Shown: positions 4,861 through 61,076 of the stretch, one piece after another
How the letters are laid out: each line of letters begins with the position of its first letter
Numbering within the stretch: position 1 is the stretch's first letter
Origin: Uloborus plumipes
Lineage: Eukaryota > Arthropoda > Arachnida > Araneae > Uloboridae
Assembly: GCA_038373865.1 (NCBI GenBank)
Contig: JAXGGA010005612.1
Span: 1 to 64,000 of the forward strand
DNA length: 64,000 nucleotides
Reading direction: 5' to 3'
Program-made: the position numbers and the translations under genes
Notes under the pieces: generated by a model
Told to the model about the DNA's origin: nothing
Seen by the model: only the letters and a program-made list of their open reading frames with translations
The model's database searches: none

Positions 4861-4866
4861 CACGGG
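4861..4866. repeat. Left target-site duplication CACGGG
   Basis: The hexamer CACGGG directly abuts the left terminal repeat and recurs exactly at 14588-14593. A 6-bp duplication is the hallmark of Polinton/Maverick integration. Confidence 0.93.
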
Positions 4867-5255
4867 AGTAGTGTTAAAAGGCCGTTTCTGCCGCAGGAGG
4901 TGCAGGTGCAGGGTGTGCAGGGTCCTGCACCTCCCAACACTTCCTCCCCCCACCTGCACCTCCCCCACCCTGGGTTGAGTTGTTTAGGGGCTGCTGCTTG
5001 GGGTTGAGTTGTTTTCAGGGCCGCCGGGAGTTTTACACGTTGAAGAAGGTTATGAGGCTTTTTTTCGAATGGCAACACCTTTTCTGGTTGCTATGACAAC
5101 CAAATATTTAGGTTTCTTTGAATGGCAACACTTGTTGCGTTTTTGGGGCCGCCGGGAGTTTTCGGTTGGCAACACGTTCTTGCTTACGCAAGACTACAAG
5201 GTGATGATCTGGTTGCTATGACAACCAAATATTTAGGTTTCTTTGAATGGCAACA
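4867..5255 (+). repeat. Left terminal inverted repeat, 389 bp
   Basis: It matches the reverse complement of 14199-14587 over 389 bp without indels. One mismatch was noticed (C against T within the CTGGTTGCTATGAC segment). It is C-rich in its outer 120 bp. It also carries the first copy and most of the second copy of a direct repeat of about 72 bp (5084 and 5209). Short open frames inside it are mirrored in both ends and are not regarded as genes. Confidence 0.93.
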
Positions 5256-5278
5256 CTTGTTGTGTTTTTGGGGCCGCC

Positions 5279-5339
5279 GGTTTAAATGAATCTCAATATA
5301 ATTTTTAATATCAAAGAACGATGATGGTGCCATCTGTTG
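5279..5339 (+). repeat. Subterminal inverted repeat block, left
   Basis: This 61-bp block is inverted relative to 13781-13841 with about four mismatches, all in an AT-rich patch. It includes the motif ATGGTGCCATCT. It is clearly more diverged than the terminal repeats. Confidence 0.8.
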
Positions 5340-5352
5340 CTGGAAATTTTAA

Positions 5353-5565
5353 GTGATGAATATAAAGTATTATAGTGTTGTCATATTCTTTTTATTTCTT
5401 GTAATGGCGTCAAGAGAGGAGGTTGTATGGATTACCGTCCTTTATATTAGTTTGTGTATTGTGATGTGTATAATATATATTCTGACAGGAAAATCAGATT
5501 TTGAAGTTGATTTTCTACTTAAACCGAATGACACGTCAAATTCCCTCATATCGTTTCGAGGATGA
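5353..5565 (+). CDS. Small putative membrane protein of the Polinton
   Basis: A 70-residue frame sits between the left terminal repeat and the integrase. Residues 6-18 (a run rich in V, I, F and L) and about 25-45 form two hydrophobic segments separated by a short charged stretch (SREE). A polar, acidic tail follows. It has no recognised family. Small membrane proteins are common in virion-forming elements, so a virion membrane or host-interaction role is possible but is inference only. It is in the same frame as the integrase, separated by one stop codon and 39 nt. A TATA-like AATATAAAG overlaps its start, so the region could instead be the integrase leader. Confidence that it is translated is moderate to low. 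Confidence 0.4.
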   Translation: MMNIKYYSVVIFFLFLVMASREEVVWITVLYISLCIVMCIIYILTGKSDFEVDFLLKPNDTSNSLISFRG

Positions 5566-5604
5566 TTCACATCAAAGTGTCGGATAATCATTTCTCCTGC
5601 TGCA

Positions 5605-6648
5605 ATGAAGAAAGCCTATCAGGAACCGGGTCGAGAAGCAAGTTTTGGTGGTGTCGATGCATTATATCGTGCTGCACGAGGAAAAGTGTCCAAAAAAGTC
5701 ATTCAGAAATATTTAACGGGAGTGGATGCATACACACTTCACCGTCCTGCAAGAAAGAGGTTCCCAACCAATCAGGTGATTGTTCATTCCAAGGATCACC
5801 AATGGCAAGCAGATCTCGCAGATCTTTCAAGTTTACAAAAACATAATCGAGGTTATCGATATATATTGACATGTATTGATATTTTCTCAAAGTATGCATG
5901 GGCAATACCTCTGAAAACGAAACAAGGGAGTGAGATTGTTGAAGCATTCAAGTCTATTTTTTCTGAGAGAAAGCCAAAGTTACTGCAAACGGATCAAGGA
6001 ACTGAATTTAAAAATGCACTCTTTCAAAAGTTTCTCCGAGAGAATCAAGTCAAGTTCTTTACGACTTTTAACGCCACAAAGGCCTCGGTCGTAGAAAGGT
6101 TCAATCGTACCCTGAAAACAAAAATGTGGAAGTATTTTACGAGTCAAAATACTTATAATTTTATAGATGTCATTGACGATTTGGTGAAAAGCTATAATAT
6201 CACTTACCATTCGACCATCAAGAGAGCACCTGCAGAAGTGAACGATGATAACGAGAGTGATGTGTATTTCGCAACCTATGGCGATAATCAAGATACAGAA
6301 GTGAAACCGTGCACTTTCAATGTTGGAGATGTCGTTCGTATTTCAAAGCAAAAACTCACCTTTGAAAAAGGGTATGAGTCAAATTGGACAGAAGAAATGT
6401 TCATTGTCACAGAGTGCGTGAGAAGATCCATTCCTGTATATCGTGTGAAAGATTTAATGGGCGAGGCCATTCAAGGTACTTTTTATCCTCAAGAATTACA
6501 AAAAGTGAAACTTAAAGAAGATTATACTGTTGAAAAAATATTGCGAAAGAGGAAAAAGGGAAATCAAACTGAATATTTTGTCAAGTTTCGTGGATACCCG
6601 GATAAATTCAACCAATGGATTCCAGCCTTGCAGCTGTCTGAACTATAA
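5605..6648 (+). CDS. INT: Polinton-type DDE integrase with C-terminal chromodomain
   Basis: This is a retrovirus-like integrase of 347 residues that would insert the linear element and create the 6-bp duplication. The rve core shows the catalytic triad: D70 (in WQADLADL), D130 (in LLQTDQGTEF) and E164 (in VVERFNRT). A C-terminal chromodomain spans about 307-344 (YTVEKIL, FVKFRGYP, NQWIP) and could direct insertion to marked chromatin. The N-terminal GVDALYRAARGK and AYTLHRPARKRFP segments resemble the conserved start of the family annotated as F54H12.3-like. The first ATG is at 5605, but the frame is open back to 5566. The stop codon lies inside a TATAAAT motif just before the next gene. The frame is complete, with catalytic residues kept. 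Confidence 0.93.
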   Translation: MKKAYQEPGREASFGGVDALYRAARGKVSKKVIQKYLTGVDAYTLHRPARKRFPTNQVIVHSKDHQWQADLADLSSLQKHNRGYRYILTCIDIFSKYAWAIPLKTKQGSEIVEAFKSIFSERKPKLLQTDQGTEFKNALFQKFLRENQVKFFTTFNATKASVVERFNRTLKTKMWKYFTSQNTYNFIDVIDDLVKSYNITYHSTIKRAPAEVNDDNESDVYFATYGDNQDTEVKPCTFNVGDVVRISKQKLTFEKGYESNWTEEMFIVTECVRRSIPVYRVKDLMGEAIQGTFYPQELQKVKLKEDYTVEKILRKRKKGNQTEYFVKFRGYPDKFNQWIPALQLSEL

Positions 6649-6650
6649 AT
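6644..6650 (+). promoter_or_regulatory. TATA-like box before the capsid gene block
   Basis: TATAAAT lies 38 nt upstream of the penton ATG at 6688 and contains the integrase stop codon. The same heptamer precedes the gene at 10361. It is a candidate promoter by position and motif only. Confidence 0.35.
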
Positions 6651-6687
6651 ATCGAGCACATGATATAATTTGCTCAGTCTTGTCGAG

Positions 6688-7434
6688 ATGTCGTTCTTCA
6701 TCACATTGCCGAGCGATAATTCCTTGAATTATTTTCCCGATAATAAGATATCGCATTTTATTACGCGACTACCAACACCCATTGAACTAACCGGCCAGTG
6801 GGAATGTGCCTTAGTCGAATTGATCTATCCTCATACTTGGTATAATGTGAACCGAGAGAATAACTTGATCGGATTTGATTTGGGTGATGGAAAAGAATTA
6901 GGCAGAAATATTCCACCTGGATGTTATGAAAATGTGCCTGACATTTTAAAAGCGATAAGTATACCAGACCATGATAATCGAATTTCATTCAACTATAATA
7001 CTGTAACAAAACGTGTGCGTATCAAAGTAAAAAACAAGGCGCGCGTTGTCTTTCATGAAGGATTATCACAGATGTTGGGATTTCCACCTATGGTCATCGG
7101 TGGCGAGAGCGACAAAAATGTAGAGCAGACAGCGTTCAGCCCTCAAATTGCAGATCCAAATGCTCATTTCAGAGTGTTGATGATTTATACAGATATTATC
7201 GAACATCAAATCGTGGGAGATGTGTATGCACCTCTCCTTCGAACAGTTACAGTAACAGGTACTGACGGAGAGATGGTCAGCGTTGAATATGAAAGACCTC
7301 ATTATCTGCCTGTGAGTCGAAAAATTATAGACACCATTGAAATCGTTATAAGGACCAACACTGGACTGTTAGTGCCATTCGAGCGTGGGAGATCGTACGT
7401 GAAACTTCACTTTCGCCAGAAGTACCTCTCATGA
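6688..7434 (+). CDS. Penton-like minor capsid protein
   Basis: The protein has 248 residues and begins MSFFITLPS; an upstream TTG in the same frame is not a credible start. The N-terminal pattern (ITLPSDNSLNYFPDN, then PIELTGQWECALVEL and YPHTWYNV) matches the protein regularly encoded beside F54H12.2-like capsid genes in animal Polintons. This protein is usually interpreted as the single-jelly-roll minor capsid or penton. The central part is beta-rich in character, and the C-terminus ends FERGRSYVKLHFRQKYLS, a motif typical of the family. It would sit at particle vertices. Its stop overlaps the next start in ATGA. Assignment rests on remembered family patterns and context. Confidence 0.75.
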   Translation: MSFFITLPSDNSLNYFPDNKISHFITRLPTPIELTGQWECALVELIYPHTWYNVNRENNLIGFDLGDGKELGRNIPPGCYENVPDILKAISIPDHDNRISFNYNTVTKRVRIKVKNKARVVFHEGLSQMLGFPPMVIGGESDKNVEQTAFSPQIADPNAHFRVLMIYTDIIEHQIVGDVYAPLLRTVTVTGTDGEMVSVEYERPHYLPVSRKIIDTIEIVIRTNTGLLVPFERGRSYVKLHFRQKYLS

Positions 7435-7856
7435 TGTATGTGCCATATCAATGCTGCCAAAAATCCTTCGAGGATTACTATACTCAACAAATTGGAAATG
7501 GACTTAATTATTATCAAGGTGCCCCATATCAAAGAGGATATGGTTTCGGTGGTCTCTTCAAATCTTTCTTCAGAGCTGCGGTCCCCCTATTCAAATCAGG
7601 GGCAAAGACGGTTGGAAAGCAAATTTTGAATAGTGGTGTTGACTTATTCAATGATGTGTCACGTGGTGAAAATCTGAAAGTGGCTGCGAAGCGTCGACTG
7701 AAAGAAGCTGGAAAAAATTTGACTGATAAAGCTGCAGTTAAAATTAAAACCATGATTGGATCTGGAAAAAAGAATAAAAAGCGTAAGCTTTATGAGAATC
7801 CAATCAGTTTTCGCAAAACCAAGAGAGTGAAAAGACATCACGATATCTTCTCCTAA
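7431..7856 (+). CDS. PX/core-like basic protein of the Polinton
   Basis: This 141-residue, strongly basic protein starts in the ATGA overlap with the penton gene. Residues 20-40 are rich in Gly and Tyr (NYYQGAPYQRGYGFGG). Residues 41-70 form an amphipathic segment (LFKSFFRAAVPLFKSG). The C-terminus from 112 is a run of Lys and Arg. This layout matches the Polinton PX family and resembles adenoviral minor core or pVI-type proteins that bind DNA or membranes inside the particle. M108-I-G-S111 followed by G112 fits the adenain consensus (M/I/L)xGx-G, which would release a 30-residue basic peptide. Five bases separate it from the major capsid gene. Confidence 0.7.
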   Translation: MMYVPYQCCQKSFEDYYTQQIGNGLNYYQGAPYQRGYGFGGLFKSFFRAAVPLFKSGAKTVGKQILNSGVDLFNDVSRGENLKVAAKRRLKEAGKNLTDKAAVKIKTMIGSGKKNKKRKLYENPISFRKTKRVKRHHDIFS

Positions 7857-7861
7857 GAAAA

Positions 7862-9169
7862 ATGGCCTCTCTCATCCATCGTGACTCCGAAGCATGTGTG
7901 AAATCGGAACTGGACTTATTTACGTTACCTCCTACTCAAGCTGCTATTGAAAAAGGAAACTTTGTCGAATATCATCCTATTGCCAGCGTGAAAGATGGTG
8001 GACCACTGGAGTACTTAATATCCGGATCCGGATCTGAATATACGGACCTCTCGGCATCTTACATCTATGTGAAAGCAAAAATAGTCAAGTCTGATGGATC
8101 TGCATTACCTGACAAAGAACCTGTTGTTCCAGCCAACTTATTCCTGCATTCTCTTTTTTCACAAATCGACGTCAGTTTGAACGAGCGAATCATTTCTTCA
8201 GCAAGCAATACATATCCTTATCGTGCATACATTGAAACTCTCTTGAATTATGGAGAAGATGCAAAGAAAAGTTTACTCACCTGTGAGATGTTTTACAAAG
8301 ACTCCAATCCTGCTAAAATCGATCCGACAGCCGAAGATGCAGATGATGGATTAAAAGCAAGATATGAACTCAGCAAAAATAGTAACCAGTTTGAACTCCT
8401 CGGAAAGCTCCATAGTGATATTTTCGAACAGAATCGACTTATGCTAAATTTGGTCGATATTAAAATTAAGATGATTCGAAGCAGTGCGCCATTCTGTCTC
8501 TTATCAAACAAAGACGGTGCCGACTATAAAGTGATATTGGATCATGCCTCTCTATTCATTCGAAAAGTACAAGTCAGCCCCGGAGTTTCTCTCGGACATG
8601 CAAAGGCTTTAGAAGAAAGTTCTGCCAAGTACCCCATCGATAGAGTTCTATGCAAGACCTACTCCATTTCGAAAGGAAGTTTTTCCTTCACACAAGATAA
8701 TGTATTTTTAGGTGTCATGCCTAAAAGAGTTGTGATTGGATGTGTGGAAAATGCTGCTATGAATGGACAATATCGCAAGAACCCATTTCAGTTTGCTCAT
8801 CATAATGCAAATTTTGTTGCTATTTACGTGGATGGACAACCCGTACCCAGTAAACCATTGGAATTAGATTTTGAAAATAATAATTACATCTGTGCTTACT
8901 ACAGCATGTTTGAAGGATTTAATAGTGATAAAGGCATTTATGTATCACGTGAACAATTTTCGAAAGGAAATGCATTATACTGTTTCGACCTCTCTGCTGA
9001 TATGTGTAATGGTCCACATTTAAATTTACAGCATCAAGGAAATTTGAGAGTTGAAATTAAATTTAGCAAAGCAATCGCCGAAACTCTATCACTACTAATC
9101 TACGCCGAATTTCAAAACGTGATCGAAATTACGAAATCTCGTCACGTGTTATGTGATTTCGCCAATTAG
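7862..9169 (+). CDS. MCP: Major capsid protein (double-jelly-roll/hexon-like, F54H12.2 family)
   Basis: This 435-residue protein of the family commonly annotated as F54H12.2-like is taken as the Polinton major capsid protein. Family-typical stretches include the N-terminal DLFTLPPTQAAIEKG, the ISGSGSEYTDLS segment near residue 53, LFSQIDVSLNERIIS near 105-119, the YPYRAYIETLLNYG segment that follows, and the KNPFQFAHHNANFVAIYVDG block in the second half. Residues near the end (LSLLIYAEFQNVIEI) form the usual terminal strand. Copies would form the icosahedral shell with the penton protein. It starts at the ATG at 7862 and is complete. The protease gene begins one base after its stop. Confidence 0.88.
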   Translation: MASLIHRDSEACVKSELDLFTLPPTQAAIEKGNFVEYHPIASVKDGGPLEYLISGSGSEYTDLSASYIYVKAKIVKSDGSALPDKEPVVPANLFLHSLFSQIDVSLNERIISSASNTYPYRAYIETLLNYGEDAKKSLLTCEMFYKDSNPAKIDPTAEDADDGLKARYELSKNSNQFELLGKLHSDIFEQNRLMLNLVDIKIKMIRSSAPFCLLSNKDGADYKVILDHASLFIRKVQVSPGVSLGHAKALEESSAKYPIDRVLCKTYSISKGSFSFTQDNVFLGVMPKRVVIGCVENAAMNGQYRKNPFQFAHHNANFVAIYVDGQPVPSKPLELDFENNNYICAYYSMFEGFNSDKGIYVSREQFSKGNALYCFDLSADMCNGPHLNLQHQGNLRVEIKFSKAIAETLSLLIYAEFQNVIEITKSRHVLCDFAN

Positions 9170-9170
9170 A

Positions 9171-9647
9171 ATGGATTCGAATCAAATACAGAGTATTCTA
9201 CAAAATGACTCATCCACCAAAAAATATTTCCTAGGTGTGTTTCCTAGTGATTATTTAAACGATGTCATTATTCATAAAACCCCTGCTTGTTTTGTTGCAA
9301 ACGTGGACACTTCGAACGAATCCGGAAGTCATTGGGTGGCCTTTTATATTGATCAGCATCAACTTGAATTTTTCGATTCTTATGGACATCCCCCATCTTT
9401 TTTCAAAGGACCTATTCATGATTTTGTATCACAATTTCCAACTGTGACTTATAACCCTATGACATTGCAGAGTAATGTCACGGCCGTGTGTGGTCAGTAT
9501 TGTATTTATTATTTATATTCAAAATGTCGCGGTCGTTCATTGAAAACAATATTATCAACTTTTGTAAACGGACACATGTGTAATGACAAAAGTGTCTATA
9601 ATTTTGTAGCCAATCATTTTCATGTATTTCCGAATTTCAATCAATAA
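9171..9647 (+). CDS. PRO: Adenain-type cysteine maturation protease
   Basis: The 158-residue protein is counted from ATG 9171, one base after the capsid stop; an in-frame GTG at 9153 lies inside the capsid gene and is rejected. It has the C5/Ulp1-like order of active residues: H54 in SGSHWVAFYID, D69 in LEFFDSYG, a Gln (Q101) before the nucleophile, and C107 in AVCGQYCIYYL. Adenains process capsid and core proteins during virion maturation. Candidate sites fitting (M/I/L)xGx-G occur in the PX-like protein and in the 117-residue protein encoded further downstream. The stop codon is embedded in an AATAAA at 9643-9648. The catalytic set is intact, so the enzyme should be active. Confidence 0.9.
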   Translation: MDSNQIQSILQNDSSTKKYFLGVFPSDYLNDVIIHKTPACFVANVDTSNESGSHWVAFYIDQHQLEFFDSYGHPPSFFKGPIHDFVSQFPTVTYNPMTLQSNVTAVCGQYCIYYLYSKCRGRSLKTILSTFVNGHMCNDKSVYNFVANHFHVFPNFNQ

Positions 9648-9648
9648 A
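9643..9648 (+). terminator. Poly(A) signal AATAAA overlapping the protease stop
   Basis: AATAAA contains the TAA stop codon of the protease gene and probably ends the capsid-block transcripts. Confidence 0.5.
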
Positions 9649-9692
9649 TTTATATTTAAATGAATATCATTCTTCTCTGTCTCTCATTCACG

Positions 9693-10322
9693 ATGGAATT
9701 TCCAAAGCTGCAAGTCAGCTTTACAATGGTAGCCAGTGGGCCAACCGGAAGTGGGAAAAGTCATTTCATATCAAATCTTCTGAAACATAGACATGAAATG
9801 TTTTCAAAAGTACCTGACAAAGTTGTATGGTTCTATGGTGTGTATCAGAGTTTGTATGATACGATACCGGATGTGACGTTCGTCGAAGGATTTCCTGCTA
9901 ATTATATGGACTTATTAGGAGATAATACATTGTTCATCATTGATGATTTGATGGCAGAGTGTGGAAAAAATGATGTCATCACTAAGTTATTTACTCGAGG
10001 CAGTCATCATCTCAACATTTCAGTTATATTCATAACGCAAAATTTCTTTCACAAGGGAAAAGAAATGCGTGAAATTACTTTAAATGCACATTATATCCTC
10101 CTTTTCAAAAATAGGAGAGATTTGAGTCAGGTGACTCATTTAGGAAACCAGATTTTTCCAAGACATTTGAAATTTTTCCAAGAAGTGTTTGAAGACGCGA
10201 CCAAGAAAAAGTTTTCTTATCTCTTGATCGACTTGAGAAATGAAACACCCGAACCAATGAGATTACGCACAAATATTCTTCCCTATGAGACTCAGTATAT
10301 ATATCAGAGAAGAGCAGTATAA
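9693..10322 (+). CDS. ATPase: Genome-packaging ATPase (FtsK/HerA type)
   Basis: The 209-residue protein is counted from the ATG at 9693 (MEFPKLQVSF), chosen because family members start near MEFP and its context is strong. An upstream in-frame ATG at 9660 would add 11 hydrophobic residues. Walker A is GPTGSGKS (16-23). Walker B is LFIIDD (80-85). A sensor-like SVIFITQNFF follows near 110-119, ending in the Gln-containing motif typical of A32/FtsK-like packaging enzymes. The role is to pump the linear genome into preformed capsids. The stop codon lies within a TATAAAA. The frame is complete, and gene order (protease then ATPase) is normal for Polintons. Confidence 0.9.
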   Translation: MEFPKLQVSFTMVASGPTGSGKSHFISNLLKHRHEMFSKVPDKVVWFYGVYQSLYDTIPDVTFVEGFPANYMDLLGDNTLFIIDDLMAECGKNDVITKLFTRGSHHLNISVIFITQNFFHKGKEMREITLNAHYILLFKNRRDLSQVTHLGNQIFPRHLKFFQEVFEDATKKKFSYLLIDLRNETPEPMRLRTNILPYETQYIYQRRAV

Positions 10323-10333
10323 AACAGACATGC

Positions 10334-10340
10334 TATAAAT
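10334..10340 (+). promoter_or_regulatory. TATA-like box before the 117-residue gene
   Basis: TATAAAT lies 21 nt before the ATG at 10361 and has the same CTATAAATA context as the motif at 6643-6651. A second TATAAAA at 10318 overlaps the ATPase stop. Candidate only. Confidence 0.3.
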
Positions 10341-10360
10341 AATGTGAATCATTTTCAATC

Positions 10361-10714
10361 ATGACAATCACGAAGCAACAGCTGAACGAGTTACATCTCT
10401 TGCAAATTTGTCCTGCAAAACTTCAGAAAGAGTTGTTGAAAAATATTGATATAGGTTGTATCAAAGCAATATGCGAGTGCAGTCATAATTTACTCTGTGG
10501 AAATATACCTATTTCGAAACATCAAAAGAAGAAATTATCAAAGCATAAGACGACCCTTCGCAAGTTGGCGAATAAAAAATTAGCTTTAGCTAAAAAACGA
10601 AAGTTGGTCGTTCAAAAAGGTGGCTTTCTTAGCTTTCTCATTCCTGCTGCCGTGAATATATTATCATCCATTTTCGGAAATGGAGCACGCCAAGAAATAC
10701 GCCCTGATTCCTGA
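10361..10714 (+). CDS. Polinton-associated small basic protein with hydrophobic tail
   Basis: The protein has 117 residues. A helical N-terminal half includes a Cys-rich IGCIKAICECSHNLLCGN segment (31-48). A Lys/Arg-rich helix follows (55-86). Then comes a Gly-Gly hinge and a hydrophobic stretch, FLSFLIPAAVNILSSIFG (89-106). This order (ICECAxNxLxGN, basic helix, GG, hydrophobic tail) recurs in animal Polinton gene clusters, but I know no tested function. The tail could be membrane-active, as in adenoviral pVI; that is inference. I104-F-G-N107 followed by G108 fits the adenain consensus. It overlaps the next gene by 35 bp. Confidence 0.65.
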   Translation: MTITKQQLNELHLLQICPAKLQKELLKNIDIGCIKAICECSHNLLCGNIPISKHQKKKLSKHKTTLRKLANKKLALAKKRKLVVQKGGFLSFLIPAAVNILSSIFGNGARQEIRPDS

Positions 10715-11327
10715 AGAAATGGTGTCAAAGCATACGGTTACACCTAAGCAGTTGAGTGAACTTGATACACAGATGATGAATATTTTGCAAAGCAATCTTG
10801 ATGAACATGAAAAATTGGCAAAGTATACAGAATTACTGCAAAAGAAATTGAATCTAGCAGAAAACAATCCTCCTTGGACCCCACCTCGAGAAGAAGAAGA
10901 AAGAAAAACAGAAGAAAACCGCCAGCAGTATGAACCCACCATATTCAGCACTATTAATAAACAATATTTGAATCAAGCCCAGAACTTGATGGATATTATG
11001 AAAAGGCGTCCGGATATTCTCACCTGGAATGATAAGGGTGAAGTCATTTACAAACATCAGAAGATTGAACATTCGAATATTGCTGATTTATTAAATTTAA
11101 TTTTCAGCCACAAGAAAAAAACTGTTGATGTGCCTTGGTCACATGAATTTTTAAATTCATTGCAAGAAATGAATGTCCCTAAATTTTTTGTGAAGAATAA
11201 AAATCTATACGAGAAGAAAATTGTCACTGAAGAATCAGATGTGAAACCTGTTCTTACACCTAAACTTGTAAATTCTCTTCCAAGAAGGAAGCGAAAATCA
11301 AATGCAAAATGGGATAATATGTATTAA
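10680..11327 (+). CDS. Element-specific protein, function unknown
   Basis: This is a 215-residue hydrophilic protein starting MEHAKKYALIPEEMV. Residues 25-60 are predicted coiled coil or helical (heptad-like Leu spacing in DEHEKLAKYTELLQKKLNL). A Pro/Glu/Arg-rich linker follows at 62-82. The second half has the pattern DILTWNDKGEVIYK (about 111-124) and SNIADLLNLIFSH. This resembles an unnamed protein I associate with arthropod Polintons, in which a target-strand or substrate segment precedes a basic C-terminus (PRRKRKS). It is the last gene on the + strand. Its start overlaps the preceding gene by 35 bp. Its stop lies in AATAAA at 11326-11331. Confidence 0.65.
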   Translation: MEHAKKYALIPEEMVSKHTVTPKQLSELDTQMMNILQSNLDEHEKLAKYTELLQKKLNLAENNPPWTPPREEEERKTEENRQQYEPTIFSTINKQYLNQAQNLMDIMKRRPDILTWNDKGEVIYKHQKIEHSNIADLLNLIFSHKKKTVDVPWSHEFLNSLQEMNVPKFFVKNKNLYEKKIVTEESDVKPVLTPKLVNSLPRRKRKSNAKWDNMY

Positions 11328-11331
11328 TAAA
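11326..11331 (+). terminator. Poly(A) signal ending the rightward genes
   Basis: AATAAA overlaps the TAA stop of the 215-residue gene and faces the minus-strand signal at 11426-11431. Confidence 0.55.
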
Positions 11332-11425
11332 AAAGTTATTATTATTGAATCATTGCCTCATCATTGACTTTTTCATCATTTTGATTAAATGAAAACAGAG
11401 AAACAAAGTTAAAGGAAATAATACA

Positions 11426-11431
11426 TTTATT
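11426..11431 (-). terminator. Poly(A) signal of the AlkB-fusion gene
   Basis: TTTATT on + (AATAAA on -) lies 32 nt beyond the stop of the convergent gene. Confidence 0.5.
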
Positions 11432-11462
11432 ATTCATTCACAATAATATTTGGAAAAAGTAC

Positions 11463-13265
11463 TTACAAATCATCCATTCGAGCTTTCAAATACTCCACAT
11501 TCATTTTTTGAATTTCGTTATCACTCATTTTCACCTTAGTAGCCAAATCATTTACAAGTTTTAAAAAGTCAATACAAATGAAAATGTTATCATCCATTGT
11601 GTAATATTTTTCTTTAACTGTTAATGACATGCATTCATGTCGCTTCTGTGAGGGATGATTATGTTTACATCCTGTGCACTCATAGTTCATGTTAATGCAT
11701 GCTCGCATTTCGGTGATAAAACAGTCAAAGATAATTTCAAATGTTTCTACTTCATCAGCAGGATTTTGAAAAACTTGCATTTCTTCGCATTTTAACATTT
11801 GTCGGAAATGGTCAAATACTGCCTCTAAAATTTTTTCATCAAAAATCATATTATCATCCTTTATTTTCTTTATATTGTATTCACTGAGGACGATACATCC
11901 TTTTTTCATCGAGAATTCTTCGACGGTTTCTACAAGTTGATAAATTTCACAGTCACCATTTCTACAAATAACAAGTGCATCGTTTCCTGCTACAAAGTTG
12001 CTGCTGGAGTATCTGGAATTGTATTCCCATATTTTTCTCTGAAAATGAAGCCAACTTAGTGGTTGAAAATTAATTTTTACACCTGAAGCACTATTTTCAA
12101 GCACAATCGCGATTTTTCCATTTTTTCGTAAACACACATTTATTTGGTGATCATTATCGAGCTCCAAAACGTTTAAGTTGCGCTCGTCAAAACGATTGAA
12201 GGCATTTTGTAAGAATACATCAAGCCAATCCACTGATTGTTCACGAGAGGATGGCTGAGAAGACGCTTTAAACACTGTATCACTTGGAGAGGAACTTTGC
12301 ACGGATTCGGTCTGGTTTGTTGAAGACACAGGGGGTAAAGGAAGAGGTTTCTCTAATGCTGGAACTTCAATCTTTTCCGCTCGGACACACGTCTCCGCTG
12401 GGTTGACCAAGGGCTCACCCATCTCCGCTGGGATGCGTGTCTCTGCTGGGGTGCATGTCTCCGCTGGGGCGCACATCGTCGTCGAGGCATTCTCGAGGTT
12501 TGATCCTCCGCTTTTAAAAACAGCTTGAGGGAGGGTAGTTATACGGGGAACTTTTCTTCGACGTGGAGAGCTAGTCGATACAATTTCCATTTCAGGCTGA
12601 TTGAAGAGAGGGAAATCATCCAAAGTCCACGTCTCGGACCATGAACGTTTCGCTGCAGGTGGGGTCACATCACTCATGATGTTTCGAAAGGTGATGCTGA
12701 TCCTCGGCAGAGTTACAGTTCTGTTGGGTTTAATCCCATGGGTGAAGAGTTCATTGGTTGGGGGTAGCATAACATATAAACTGCCATGGTGACACTCTAA
12801 TTCTTGAGGTTGAAATCCGGATCTTTCAAAGGAGAGGGTTCTGGAGGCTCCAAAGTTGACACATGCAACACCGCTGGATGGATCAATGCTCTTCTCATTG
12901 TCTTTATGCTGTCCGAGAGCTGCACTTCCATCTGGGTAGAAATTGAGCAGGGCATAGTTGTATGACTTTCCCGTAGTTTTTTCAACATCCTCTTTAATTT
13001 TCATCATCATCGGATTCCATATATGAGCCGGATTCGAGGTGCCGGAGTAACGATAGTCCAGTCCTTCATCACCAAAGGCATACGATTTGCGTTTCGGTGT
13101 ATAATGTCTTCCGTACACCACAACGTTAATGGGTTGAAATGGGATATTTAAAAGTTCATTGAATATAGCATCAGCTTCTGTACGAGTGTAAAAGCGTTCT
13201 TTAACTTGAACGTTCAGGGCATTTGAAGACAGCGTGTAATCCATTTTCAATTTCTCAAACAGCAT
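11463..13265 (-). CDS. AlkB-type Fe(II)/2-oxoglutarate dioxygenase fused to an unknown C-terminal region
   Basis: The protein has 600 residues from ATG 13265 (MLFEKLKMD). Residues about 10-200 form an ALKBH2/3-like domain. The substrate-lid pattern TPKRKSYAFGDEGLDYRYSG is followed by LLNFYPDG, then H120-K-D122, H176 and R188-x5-R194 (RISITFR). These are the two Fe-binding His, the Fe-binding Asp and the 2-oxoglutarate-binding Arg, so catalysis looks possible. Such enzymes remove 1-methyladenine or 3-methylcytosine from nucleic acid. Residues about 215-345 are a low-complexity linker with an NLS-like PRRRKVPR and short repeats of PAET. Residues 345-600 look folded and unrecognised, with C530, C533, H535, H537, H543 and C545 as a possible zinc site (CTGCKHNHPSQKRHEC). 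The gene occupies the place where a polymerase gene would be expected. Confidence 0.85.
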   Translation of the reverse strand: MLFEKLKMDYTLSSNALNVQVKERFYTRTEADAIFNELLNIPFQPINVVVYGRHYTPKRKSYAFGDEGLDYRYSGTSNPAHIWNPMMMKIKEDVEKTTGKSYNYALLNFYPDGSAALGQHKDNEKSIDPSSGVACVNFGASRTLSFERSGFQPQELECHHGSLYVMLPPTNELFTHGIKPNRTVTLPRISITFRNIMSDVTPPAAKRSWSETWTLDDFPLFNQPEMEIVSTSSPRRRKVPRITTLPQAVFKSGGSNLENASTTMCAPAETCTPAETRIPAEMGEPLVNPAETCVRAEKIEVPALEKPLPLPPVSSTNQTESVQSSSPSDTVFKASSQPSSREQSVDWLDVFLQNAFNRFDERNLNVLELDNDHQINVCLRKNGKIAIVLENSASGVKINFQPLSWLHFQRKIWEYNSRYSSSNFVAGNDALVICRNGDCEIYQLVETVEEFSMKKGCIVLSEYNIKKIKDDNMIFDEKILEAVFDHFRQMLKCEEMQVFQNPADEVETFEIIFDCFITEMRACINMNYECTGCKHNHPSQKRHECMSLTVKEKYYTMDDNIFICIDFLKLVNDLATKVKMSDNEIQKMNVEYLKARMDDL

Positions 13266-13780
13266 AAAACTAGCAACTGAACACAACGAAATCAGGAGTC
13301 AGAATGAATTTTTATCATGAAAATGGTCACAAAGAGATATCAGTTCGTGGCGCTGCAGTCGGATTGATTAAACATCACGTGTCATTTAATCTCAAGATAA
13401 TCACAAGAAAGTATGTGTAATCTCTTATCACATGAGGTGGGGACCCACTCTTGTTGACATTGAATCATCGACCTCTGACCGCAAGCTTATCAATATCATC
13501 CGGTGAACAATCATGTGGGTACGTGTAATCAACATTGTATCTGAACTCACTACTCTGATAAAAACTGTAACTGCGAAATTAGAGAAAATATTTAAATTTT
13601 CAAATGTTCGAAATTAATTTAATTTGTCAAATTACTAATTAAATTTTGTATGCAAATTAACTTCATTGAGTAATGAACAGAAAAAAATTAATTTTCATTG
13701 AGAAAGTATGATTTCGGTTTGAAAAATAAATCAAGTTCAAAGAAATAATTAGATTTGAAAAAAAAAAAATAAATCCCCGT

Positions 13781-13841
13781 CAACAGATGGCACCATCATC
13801 GTTCTTTAACACTGAAAATTATATTGAGATTCATTTAAACC
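13781..13841 (-). repeat. Subterminal inverted repeat block, right
   Basis: It is the inverted partner of 5279-5339, 61 bp with about four mismatches. It is separated from the right terminal repeat by 357 bp, against 23 bp on the left, so the right end carries extra sequence. Confidence 0.8.
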
Positions 13842-13863
13842 TTTACTTGAGTGAAAGCATTGG

Positions 13864-13937
13864 TGGCTCAATTGACAAAGCGCGCGGTCAATTGAAGCAT
13901 CAATACTTTTTGGATTCGAAGGCCGCATGTTCGAAAC
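13864..13937 (+). other. tRNA-like internal promoter pair (A box and B box)
   Basis: TGGCTCAATTG (13864) fits the A-box pattern TRGYNNARNNG. GTTCGAAAC (13929) fits the B-box core. The acceptor side shows ATTGG paired with CCAAT, but the T and anticodon stems do not fold well. This is a decayed tRNA, a SINE head or chance; it is not called as a functional tRNA. Confidence 0.25.
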
Positions 13938-14198
13938 TCACCCCAATCAGCGAAAAATATTCAAAGTCCCGAAATGAAAAAAAAGAATTAAATTCGTTCA
14001 CTCAATAGATGGCGCCATGAGCGCCTAGAATAAAATTAAATTCCAGAAAATATTCAGAGTCAGTAAAATAAAATAAAGTAATCTTAAGGTTAAACAAAAT
14101 CCTCGTAGATGGCGCCACGATTGAAATTAACTCTGTAAAATATTACACAAGTGTTGCCATTCCCTAAAAGAGAAACTCTGGTTGCTACGGTGATCTCC

Positions 14199-14587
14199 TG
14201 TTGCCATTCAAAGAAACCTAAATATTTGGTTGTCATAGCAACCAGATCATCACCTTGTAGTCTTGCGTAAGCAAGAACGTGTTGCCAACCGAAAACTCCC
14301 GGCGGCCCCAAAAACGCAACAAGTGTTGCCATTCAAAGAAACCTAAATATTTGGTTGTCATAACAACCAGAAAAGGTGTTGCCATTCGAAAAAAAGCCTC
14401 ATAACCTTCTTCAACGTGTAAAACTCCCGGCGGCCCTGAAAACAACTCAACCCCAAGCAGCAGCCCCTAAACAACTCAACCCAGGGTGGGGGAGGTGCAG
14501 GTGGGGGGAGGAAGTGTTGGGAGGTGCAGGACCCTGCACACCCTGCACCTGCACCTCCTGCGGCAGAAACGGCCTTTTAACACTACT
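14199..14587 (-). repeat. Right terminal inverted repeat, 389 bp
   Basis: It is the inverted partner of 4867-5255 with one mismatch noticed. It ends in CACTACT next to the right CACGGG duplication. Confidence 0.93.
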
Positions 14588-14593
14588 CACGGG
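14588..14593. repeat. Right target-site duplication CACGGG
   Basis: An exact copy of 4861-4866. Confidence 0.93.
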
Positions 14594-47367: not shown

Positions 47368-49276
47368 CAGGGTGAGTTCGATCGAATCTGCAATACGAAA
47401 AGGGGTGATAGAAGAGCCCAAGTGGAGTATAGAACCACCCATTAGCGGTGTCAATTCGTAACCGTAACCGAGTTATGGTATATTTAAGGAAAATTCGCAA
47501 AAAAACAAAATTATGAGAAAAAGACCAATTTCTGAAGTTTCTGTTGGGTCTACGCACAAAATAAGCACATATTTCGAAAGAGCAGAAAAAATCCTTTAAA
47601 ATGACATATTTTTCATCAGGATAGTCGCACTTTATAGCGAGTTACAAGCTTTCAAACACTGGAAACACTCAAAAATGAAATTTCATCAAACTTTTCAGTC
47701 AAAAATTTCAGAAACAACCGTATGAGCTACAACCGGTCAAATGCTTTAAAAACTTTCCCATTTCACTAGCTTTCAGATGATACAACAGAAAATCATATTG
47801 GGCTTCAAGTTCAGCAGATATTCTGGCTTTTGTTTGAAACAGTATGAAAATCGTCCTTTGTCAGAATATGGAAACCAGCAAAGAGTCAGACTTTTATGTT
47901 CTAAATTTTCTATTTCATGTAAGTGTACTGGTTTATTTATTCAAGAAAAGGAAAATTTTATAACTAAATATTAAATTGTAACACTTTATTAAGTTAATAA
48001 TCACAACAGAAGATAACAACACGTAGAAACAAAGGAAGCATTACTTTAACGCGCTTTTCACAAAGAAAAATTCAAAATTAAATGAGTTACACTAACATCT
48101 ATGAGTACATTTACATGTAAACAATCCTCAACATTTCCCAGAGCTACTGAAATTATCATCCCCCACACCGGATAGATGCCCTTGGCCTTTTAAGAGCAAA
48201 AACTACCGTCGCTCTCAATGAAATTTCATTTCTCACTTTTGCTACTGCTCCATCAAGCCAAATGCGCAAGTCCTGCAAACTGGTTGCATCTGAGCAGTAA
48301 ACTGCTTGTTTCAAGAATCTCCAAACAAAGAAGTTCACTGGCGTCAGGTCTGGTGATCTAGGTGGCCAAGGAATAGGACCCAAATGACAGGATGAATGGA
48401 CTCTATGAAATGAAATTTCATAGAGAGCGACGGTAGTTCTCGCTCTTAAAAGGCCAAGGGCATCTATCCGGTGTGGGGGATGATAATTCCAGTAGCTCTG
48501 GGAAATTTTGAGGATTGCTTACATGTAAATGTACTCATAGATGTTAGTGTAACTCATTTAATTTTGAATTTTTTTTTTTTTGTCAAAAGCGCGTTAAAGT
48601 AATGCTGCCTTTGTTTCTACGTGTTGTTATCTTCTCTTGTGATTATTAATTTAATAAAGTGTTACAATTTAATATTTAGTTATAAAATTTTCCTTTTCTT
48701 GAATAAATAAACCAGTACACTTACATGAAATAGAAAATTTAGAACATAAAAGTCTGACTCTTTGCTGGTTTCCATATTCTGACAAAGGACGATTTTCATA
48801 CTGTTTCAAACAAAAGCCAGAATATCTGCTGAACTTGAAGCCCAATATGATTTTCTGTTGTATCATCTGAAAGCTAGTGAAATGGGAAAGTTTTTGGTGC
48901 ATTTGACCGGTTGTAGCTCATACGGTTGTTTCTGAAATTTTTGACTGAAAAGTTTGATGAAATTTCATTTTTGAGTGTTTCCAGTGTTTGAAAGCTTGTA
49001 ACTCGCTATAAAGTGCGACTATCTTGATGAAAAAGATGTCATTTTAAAGGATTTTTTTCTGCTCTTTCGAAATATGTGCTTATTTTGTGCGTAGACCCAA
49101 CAGAAACTTCAGAAATTGGTCTTTTTCTCAGAATTTTGTTTTTTTGCGAATTTTCCTTAAATATACCATAACTCGGTTACGGTTACGAATTGACACCGCT
49201 AATGGGTGGTTCTATACTCCACTTGGGCTCTTCTATCACCCCTTTTCGTATTGCAGATTCGATCGAACTCACCCTG
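47368..49276. mobile_element. 1.9-kb hairpin element with transposase remnant in the loop
   Basis: The ends CAGGGTGAGTTCGATCGAAT and their complement are flanked by TA (47366-47367 and 49277-49278). Arms of about 870 bp are inverted with few mismatches. The loop, and the part of the left arm next to it, hold an IS630/mariner-type transposase fragment on -. Confidence 0.88.
48156..48383 (-). pseudogene. IS630/Tc1-mariner-like transposase C-terminal fragment
   Basis: The frame begins PIPWPPRSPDLTPVNFFVWR and continues FLKQAVYCSDATSLQDLRIW. This is the WPxxSPDLxPxDFxLW block around the last catalytic acidic residue of the arthropod IS630/mariner superfamily. Asn replaces the usual catalytic Asp after TPV, and the rest of the protein is missing. 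Confidence 0.75.

Positions 49277-55320: not shown

Positions 55321-57088
<1,768 letters not shown>

Positions 57089-59754: not shown

Positions 59755-61076
<1,322 letters not shown>

What the first reader, a model, noticed from the sequence alone, without database searches (positions are those of the whole stretch)
4867..14587. Intact Polinton/adintovirus-like element without a DNA polymerase
Seen directly: terminal repeats, 6-bp duplication and uninterrupted frames for integrase, major capsid, penton-like, PX-like, protease, ATPase, two small proteins and an AlkB fusion, in only 9.7 kb. Known: Polintons and adintoviruses normally encode a protein-primed type B polymerase, about 3-4 kb of coding DNA. 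No frame of that size or motif pattern exists here. Inference: this may be a compact lineage that replicates with host polymerases, by integrase-only movement, or as a satellite of a polymerase-bearing relative while keeping its own particle genes. The last would be unusual, because satellites normally drop capsid genes rather than the polymerase.
Basis: partly seen in the sequence, partly recalled or inferred. Interest (0 to 1): 0.92.

Follow-up and report, generated by a model that had tools for sequence, protein, structure and literature searches.

The report
Maverick split into two partner elements
A 9.7-kb virus-like element, present in about 20 closely similar copies in one (likely spider) genome, carries capsid and integrase genes but no DNA polymerase gene, and is likely copied by separate polymerase-carrying elements of the same genome that have nearly the same end sequences and in which no capsid gene was found.

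Summary
In detail: 4867-14587 is an intact Maverick/Polinton-type element (AGTAGT...ACTACT ends, CACGGG duplication, 389-nt end repeats differing at 1 site) with eight of nine Maverick core genes plus an AlkB-type fusion, and no PolB. It is not a one-off deletion. In its own 1.42-Gb genome, 22 of 22 capsid matches at >=98% identity have the AlkB gene downstream and 0 of 22 have a scored PolB within 16 kb; 20 of 22 keep the same 2.3-kb spacing. A subfamily 11-14% diverged in DNA also lacks PolB, and five right-half genes show dN/dS 0.07-0.20. The genome also holds PolB-bearing relatives with capsid genes and, more tellingly, four elements whose PolB genes are 99-100% identical, whose end repeats are 96-97% identical to this element's, and in which no capsid gene was found; in the three examined no integrase was found either. 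One (C930) has TSD GTTGTT, identical arms and, in the stretches read, only an open 1277-codon PolB frame. So complementary parts of a Maverick, each lacking an enzyme the other has, inserted recently with near-identical ends. Best reading: the PolB part replicates the capsid part in trans and may borrow its integrase and capsid. Trans-action is inferred, not shown.

The parts
4861..4866 (.). left target-site duplication CACGGG
4867..5255 (+). left terminal inverted repeat, begins AGTAGT
   Evidence: 1 of 389 sites differs from the right arm
5279..5349 (+). inner inverted repeat, left copy (89% to 13771-13841)
5605..6648 (+). integrase, rve core + chromodomain, 347 aa
   Evidence: PF00665 E 6e-13, PF00385 E 3e-9
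6670..7434 (+). penton-like / minor capsid protein, 254 aa
   Evidence: 37% to L001, same neighbours; name by position in the Maverick module
7431..7856 (+). PX/PW-like small protein, 141 aa
   Evidence: name by position
7862..9169 (+). major capsid protein, 435 aa
   Evidence: 2067 homologues; 97 scored matches in own genome
9153..9647 (+). adenain-type maturation protease, 164 aa
   Evidence: PF00770 E 6e-4 (below Pfam cut-off)
9660..10322 (+). genome-packaging ATPase (A32 type), 220 aa
   Evidence: PF04665 E 9e-7
10361..10714 (+). PM-like small protein, 117 aa
   Evidence: L001, L002; name by position
10680..11327 (+). PZ-like protein, 215 aa
   Evidence: name by position
11463..13286 (-). 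AlkB (ALKBH2-like 2OG-Fe(II) dioxygenase) fused to a C-terminal half likely related to a PC4-domain accessory protein, 607 aa
   Evidence: PF13532 E 2e-23; human ALKBH2 E 6e-28; for the C-terminal half
13771..13841 (-). inner inverted repeat, right copy
14199..14587 (-). right terminal inverted repeat, ends ACTACT
14588..14593 (.). right target-site duplication CACGGG

Best explanation
The element belongs to a multi-copy, PolB-less Maverick lineage that likely lost its polymerase gene and is likely replicated in trans by PolB-bearing elements of the same genome whose ends are 96-97% identical and in which no capsid gene was found. Shown: the gene set, the multi-copy PolB-less lineage, its recent independent insertions, purifying selection on five right-half genes, and PolB elements with near-identical end repeats. 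Inferred: PolB made by the partner starts protein-primed synthesis at the shared terminal repeats of the capsid element; the capsid element's integrase inserts both kinds of linear DNA; its capsid, protease and ATPase may package both. The two would then be obligate partners, each cut from a longer ancestor of the kind seen in C3906 (protease-ATPase-PM-PZ, then AlkB fusion on the other strand, then PolB; its part left of the MCP was not read). The AlkB protein, a predicted DNA-alkylation repair enzyme, is present beside PolB in C3906 too, so it is likely an inherited accessory gene and not a replacement polymerase.
For: 22 of 22 MCP matches at >=98% have the AlkB fusion downstream and 0 of 22 have a scored PolB within 16 kb (or to the contig end); 20 of 22 keep 2297-2300 nt spacing. 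20 right halves read: no PolB at E<=10, no PolB N-terminus at E<=1. Frames intact in 20 of 20 ATPase, 19 of 20 protease (from its sixth codon), 19 of 20 PM, 19 of 20 PZ, 16 of 20 AlkB. A subfamily 11-14% diverged in DNA (C436 right half; C1242) also lacks PolB, with dN/dS 0.07-0.20 for C436 against the window at dS 0.29-0.82. The window's terminal repeat matches four PolB contigs (C930, C8813, C9254, C2253) at 96-97% (C2253 at one end only); their PolB genes are 99-100% identical, open for 1277 codons in three and 1048 in one; none of the four is among the 97 scored MCP rows. C930 and C9254 have TSDs GTTGTT and CACATG and arms with 0 of 380 differences; no integrase or MCP match in the stretches tested of C930, C8813 and C9254. 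C8813 and C9254 keep PZ remnants, and C9254 an AlkB fusion and C8813 an AlkB scrap, beside PolB, as expected of the right part of a C3906-type element.
Against: No replication intermediate, particle or transcript was seen. PolB-bearing relatives with MCP 94% identical also exist (C9780, and by pairing C3906, C10017, C3239, C8773, C221) and could be the polymerase source. PolB elements of this end type are few (four seen) against 22 capsid matches. The exact AGTAGT/ACTACT end string was not found in the fetched ends of C8813 and C2253, so complete ends are verified for C930 and C9254 only. The integrase of the capsid elements alone might move them. The genome searches score only part of their candidates (repeat search 40 of 236, MCP 97 of 126, PolB 43 of 369), so a complete element with these same ends may have been missed or lie outside the assembly.
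Confidence: 0.55

Rival explanations
1. The PolB is supplied by complete Mavericks (endogenous or an infecting virus), and both the capsid elements and the PolB-only elements are non-autonomous deletion derivatives that do not need each other.
For: PolB-bearing relatives with MCP 94% identical are in the genome, and one of them, C9780, is 83-93% identical in DNA over integrase to MCP. C466 shows a PolB N-terminal frame beside an inverted copy of left-end DNA.
Against: The 3 kb after PolB in C10017 and 1.3 kb left of the integrase in C9780 hold no match to the window's terminal repeat (E<=1e-5; their true ends may lie further out), whereas the PolB-only elements match it at 96-97%. A free-rider would not be expected to keep protease and ATPase at dN/dS 0.15 and 0.07.
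Confidence: 0.25
2. The element moves by its own integrase alone: cut-and-paste or copying by host replication, with no protein-primed polymerase involved.
For: Open rve integrase frame, 6-bp duplications at distinct sites. Ginger transposons, whose transposase is related to this integrase type, are described as cut-and-paste (PMC2836005, passages).
Against: Near-identical long terminal repeats fit end-to-end DNA synthesis; PolB-only elements with near-identical ends have also inserted recently, which integrase-only movement of the capsid element does not explain; capsid-module genes would not need to be kept.
Confidence: 0.13
3. The copies are spread by segmental duplication, allelic splitting or assembly artefact, and the element is dead.
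For: The assembly has 25,906 contigs and head-to-head repeats; C1147 and C13184 have equal match statistics to the window and may be alleles.
Against: Three PolB-less loci read at both ends each carry their own 6-bp duplication (CACGGG, GTGAAC, CGTAAA); 17 of 20 right halves are collinear with the window; the window's arms differ at 1 of 389 sites.
Confidence: 0.05

Closest known systems
Vertebrate Mavericks/Polintons (PMC8097293, section 7 and passages read)
   Same: (AGT)2//(ACT)2 ends, 6-bp TSD, repeat length (389 nt against a mean of 402), the INT-mCP-PW-MCP-PRO module and the ATP-PM-PZ genes, accessory genes beside the core
   Different: No PolB; 9.7 kb against 12.7-24.6 kb for intact vertebrate elements; both modules on one strand (usual there: opposite strands)
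Adintoviruses (definition in PMC11071296, passages read)
   Same: rve integrase with C-terminal chromodomain, adenovirus-like virion genes
   Different: Adintoviruses are defined by their PolB; this element has none
Bidnaviruses (described in PMC11071296, passages read)
   Same: Adintovirus-type PolB, and some members have several genome segments; that PolB and capsid gene then sit on different DNAs is recalled
   Different: Parvovirus capsid and NS1; integrase not part of the definition given
Virophages and PLVs with a helper (PMC10120064, passages read)
   Same: Capsid-bearing DNA elements that depend on another virus
   Different: Here the likely helper is a partner element with nearly the same ends and, as far as read, only a polymerase gene
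Ginger DNA transposons (PMC2836005, passages read)
   Same: Related integrase/transposase moving without PolB
   Different: Single transposase gene; 4-5 bp TSDs in the passages read

Membership tests
Maverick/Polinton | protein-primed PolB | tested here: not met
Maverick/Polinton | rve integrase | tested here: met
Maverick/Polinton | Maverick MCP, protease and packaging ATPase | tested here: met
   protease match is under Pfam's cut-off but homologous and in the same order as in L001
Maverick/Polinton | terminal inverted repeats with (AGT)2//(ACT)2 ends and 6-bp TSD | tested here: met
Adintovirus | PolB with OTU-like domain | tested here: not met
   no PolB
Satellite of a PolB-bearing element | a polymerase source with compatible ends in the same genome | tested here: met
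   (similarity of ends; compatibility itself untested)
Satellite of a PolB-bearing element | replication shown to need that source | not testable with these tools
   needs biochemistry or intermediates
Two-part (bipartite) virus | each part lacks a function that the other has | tested here: met
   PolB absent from the capsid set; no integrase or MCP match in the stretches tested of C930, C8813, C9254, and no scored MCP row on C930, C8813, C9254, C2253
Two-part (bipartite) virus | both parts packaged in particles | not testable with these tools
   no particle data

The most novel reading that the evidence does not exclude
A Maverick virus has split into two obligate partner segments in one animal genome: a 9.7-kb capsid-integrase segment without polymerase and a polymerase segment without capsid or integrase, with shared ends, each mobilised by the other. 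It would be an endogenous bipartite Maverick caught shortly after the split.
Probability: 0.4. Interest if true: 0.95.

Novelty: new variant of a known kind. Interest (0 to 1): 0.85.

Why it matters
Mavericks are defined by, and often searched for with, PolB; the vertebrate survey required integrase and PolB on the same contig (PMC8097293, methods passage), so PolB-less lineages of this kind would be missed. A capsid element and a polymerase element with shared ends in one genome would make the origin of segmented and satellite DNA viruses directly testable: PolB-bearing capsid elements, PolB-less, PolB-only and recombinant forms stand side by side.

Tried and rejected
Single deletion derivative: rejected by copy number and by the diverged PolB-less subfamily. 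AlkB fusion as a replacement polymerase: rejected, since the PolB-bearing relative C3906 has it too. Structure predictions of the AlkB fusion and of its C-terminal half, from single sequences, had mean pLDDT 34.0 and 40.5 and were not used. Full-length AlkB fusion against 5.8 billion proteins: no match; the AlkB domain alone: 2 matches, best a Uloborus diversus ALKBH2-like protein at 57%. IMG/VR scans with the MCP, AlkB fusion and AlkB alignment: no relatives. Prokaryote genome contigs gave four loci encoding relatives, in MAG records (animal contamination inferred); three carry PolB sequence (L001 a long frame, L003 and L004 pieces). Intactness of the window's own frames is not evidence of selection, since arm divergence predicts only about 0.5 nonsense changes. 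dN/dS summed over the 19 closest copies is not informative (few, shared changes; 0 for ATPase to 1.0 for protease). The pairing used only scored candidates (PolB search: 43 scored of 369, plus six rows), so 'no PolB' by pairing is weaker than the 20 right halves read directly, and rows with neither gene (12 of 43 at 90-96%) are undecided. PolB placed about 7 kb from the MCP in five rows was read as the same element only for C3906; the other four were not read through.
Full report
WHAT IS THERE. The window carries a 9,721-bp element at 4867-14587 flanked by CACGGG. Its terminal 389 nt are inverted repeats differing at one site; they begin AGTAGT and end ACTACT, the commonest vertebrate Maverick end motif according to PMC8097293 (section 7). 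On the plus strand lie integrase, penton-like, PX/PW-like, MCP, protease, ATPase, PM-like and PZ-like genes, on the minus strand a 607-aa AlkB fusion. Gene names other than those with Pfam matches rest on order and on homology to a tubeworm-associated contig, L001, which has homologues of the same eight genes plus a PolB frame of 1,401 codons that runs off the contig. The window element has all of these but PolB. Protease stop and ATPase start are 12 nt apart.

HOST. The window is contig C5612 of an unnamed 1.42-Gb assembly of 25,906 contigs. The MCP is sister to one from the spider Uloborus diversus (support 99, 115-row tree, 81% identity), and the nearest AlkB domain is also from U. diversus (57%). 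A spider host is likely but was not established.

IT IS A LINEAGE. Searching the own genome with the MCP gave 97 scored matches (of 126 candidates), with the AlkB fusion 83 rows, with a native PolB piece 43 (43 of 369 candidates scored). Pairing them by place: at MCP >=98%, 22 of 22 have AlkB and 0 of 22 have PolB within 16 kb; at 90-96%, 24 of 43 have AlkB only, 6 PolB only, 1 both, 12 neither; at 77-84%, 4 of 8 have PolB and 4 neither; at 54-57%, 3 of 15 PolB and 12 neither; at 37-41%, 7 of 9 PolB and 2 neither. Twenty of the 22 keep 2,297-2,300 nt from MCP to AlkB. Rows include gene fragments, contigs that end early and perhaps alleles. I read 20 right halves directly: seventeen are collinear with the window over most of the right half at 97-100% (L015 is interrupted inside AlkB); L023 carries a large insert inside the protease, and L030 and L032 are rearranged. 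None of the 20 matches the native PolB piece at E<=10 or four PolB N-terminal stretches at E<=1. Three PolB-less loci read at both ends have different, perfect 6-bp duplications (window CACGGG, C35 GTGAAC, C1147 CGTAAA).

IT IS UNDER SELECTION. The window's own intact frames prove little. But C436, whose right half is mostly 81-93% identical in DNA, gives dS 0.29-0.82 and dN/dS 0.07 (ATPase), 0.09 (PM), 0.14 (PZ), 0.15 (protease) and 0.20 (AlkB) against the window. MCP and integrase were not tested this way. C1242, with AlkB at 85-87%, lacks PolB as well. If PolB was lost once before these split, packaging genes were kept under purifying selection afterwards; independent losses, or exchange of these genes with PolB-bearing elements, would weaken this step.

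THE PARTNERS. The window's terminal repeat gave 44 rows (40 of 236 candidates scored). Four of the contigs hit carry PolB: C930, C8813, C9254 (both ends each) and C2253 (one end). Their PolB genes are 99-100% identical, open for 1277 codons in three and 1048 in C9254, with NNAVYG and FTDTDS aligned to the corresponding stretches of the L001 PolB. Pfam's PolB profile did not reach E 0.1 on L038 or L039; the call rests on alignment to L001's protein (31.9% over 191 residues, E 2e-20), which matches PF03175 at E 3e-9. None of the four contigs is among the 97 MCP rows. C930 (9.4 kb) has TSD GTTGTT and arms identical over 380 nt; in the stretches fetched there is no recognised gene but PolB. C9254 has TSD CACATG, identical arms, PolB, an AlkB fusion and a PZ remnant; C8813 keeps PZ and AlkB scraps beside PolB. 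The exact end string was not found in the fetched ends of C8813 and C2253. No integrase or MCP match was found in the tested stretches of C930, C8813 or C9254 (E<=1e-4, E<=1e-3). These look like the right part of a longer element; the window lineage looks like its left part plus AlkB.

PolB-BEARING RELATIVES. In C3906 the order is protease-ATPase-PM-PZ, AlkB fusion on the other strand, then PolB (left of the MCP not read). C9780 has integrase to PZ, then PolB, then a minus-strand PC4-domain protein (PF02229 E 1.5e-8). The AlkB fusions of C466 and C3906 match the part of that protein beyond the PC4 domain (E 2e-7 and 2e-5), the window's own only weakly (E 0.002 over 54 residues), so its C-terminal half is likely of that family; the PC4 domain itself was not detected in it.

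RECOMBINATION. C9780 is 83-93% identical to the window over integrase to MCP, then 56-79%. C436 is 98-100% identical up to about 8,750 and 81-93% after. Modules have likely been exchanged between PolB-bearing and PolB-less elements. C466 has a PolB-like N-terminal frame of 148 residues next to an inverted copy of left-end DNA that includes the first integrase codons. The outer part of that right end matches the window's right end (92% over 293 nt), which suggests one route of PolB loss, replacement of the right end by an inverted left end. This is inference from one locus.

MECHANISM. Shown: two complementary gene sets, near-identical ends, recent insertion of both. Inferred: the partner PolB, protein-primed as in Mavericks generally, starts at the shared ends; the capsid element's integrase inserts both; particles may carry both. 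AlkB, related to ALKBH2, is predicted to repair alkylated DNA; it is likely an inherited accessory gene.

LITERATURE. The listings of searches showed no title or abstract start on PolB-less animal Mavericks paired with PolB-only partners. PMC11071296 (passages) reports genomes with adenovirus-class virion proteins lacking recognisable PolB and integrase, so missing PolB as such is not new. The nematode Maverick paper and the first adintovirus paper were not held, so priority is not settled.

Noticed in passing
G000:C1181:147040-156820, C677:164734-174534, C15359:11201-20422, C7603:24879-34041: Further 9-10 kb stretches bounded by the same terminal repeats with no scored MCP, AlkB or PolB row; the fetched right part of C1181 has no frame of 110 codons, and the fetched left part of C677 holds two opposed frames that look like the PolB N-terminus. 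Possibly passengers with the same ends.
   Followed up: partly
G000:C1562, C18898, C2288, C6501, C9930, C7213, C2289: Opposed copies of element genes (for example four AlkB pieces in alternating orientation between terminal repeats in C1562), as if palindromic dimers formed during replication, or assembly artefacts.
   Followed up: no
L048 (G000:C466:209300-219203): PolB-like N-terminal frame of 148 residues beside an inverted copy of left-end DNA including the first integrase codons: a possible snapshot of polymerase loss by end replacement.
   Followed up: partly
L030/L045 (G000:C436): Recombinant element: 98-100% identical to the window up to within the MCP gene, then a diverged subfamily.
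   Followed up: yes
L038, L039: The PolB frames of this genome match Pfam's recombination endonuclease VII (PF02945), and PolB N-termini of its relatives look like C2H2 zinc fingers (by eye).
   Followed up: no
L001-L004: Maverick-type sequence filed in bacterial MAG records from animal-associated samples, likely host contamination.
   Followed up: partly
window 55321-56289: Single open frame for an rRNA adenine dimethylase (PF00398 E 1e-67; DIMT1-like by recall), without introns.
   Followed up: no
window 59777-60088: Frame resembling a Smad MH1 exon (recalled, not tested).
   Followed up: no
window 48156-48518: Frame resembling a mariner transposase fragment (recalled, not tested).
   Followed up: no
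window 13842-14198: 357 nt in the right arm with no counterpart of that length in the left arm; 13679-14198 is 94% identical over 522 nt to the right end of C1181.
   Followed up: partly
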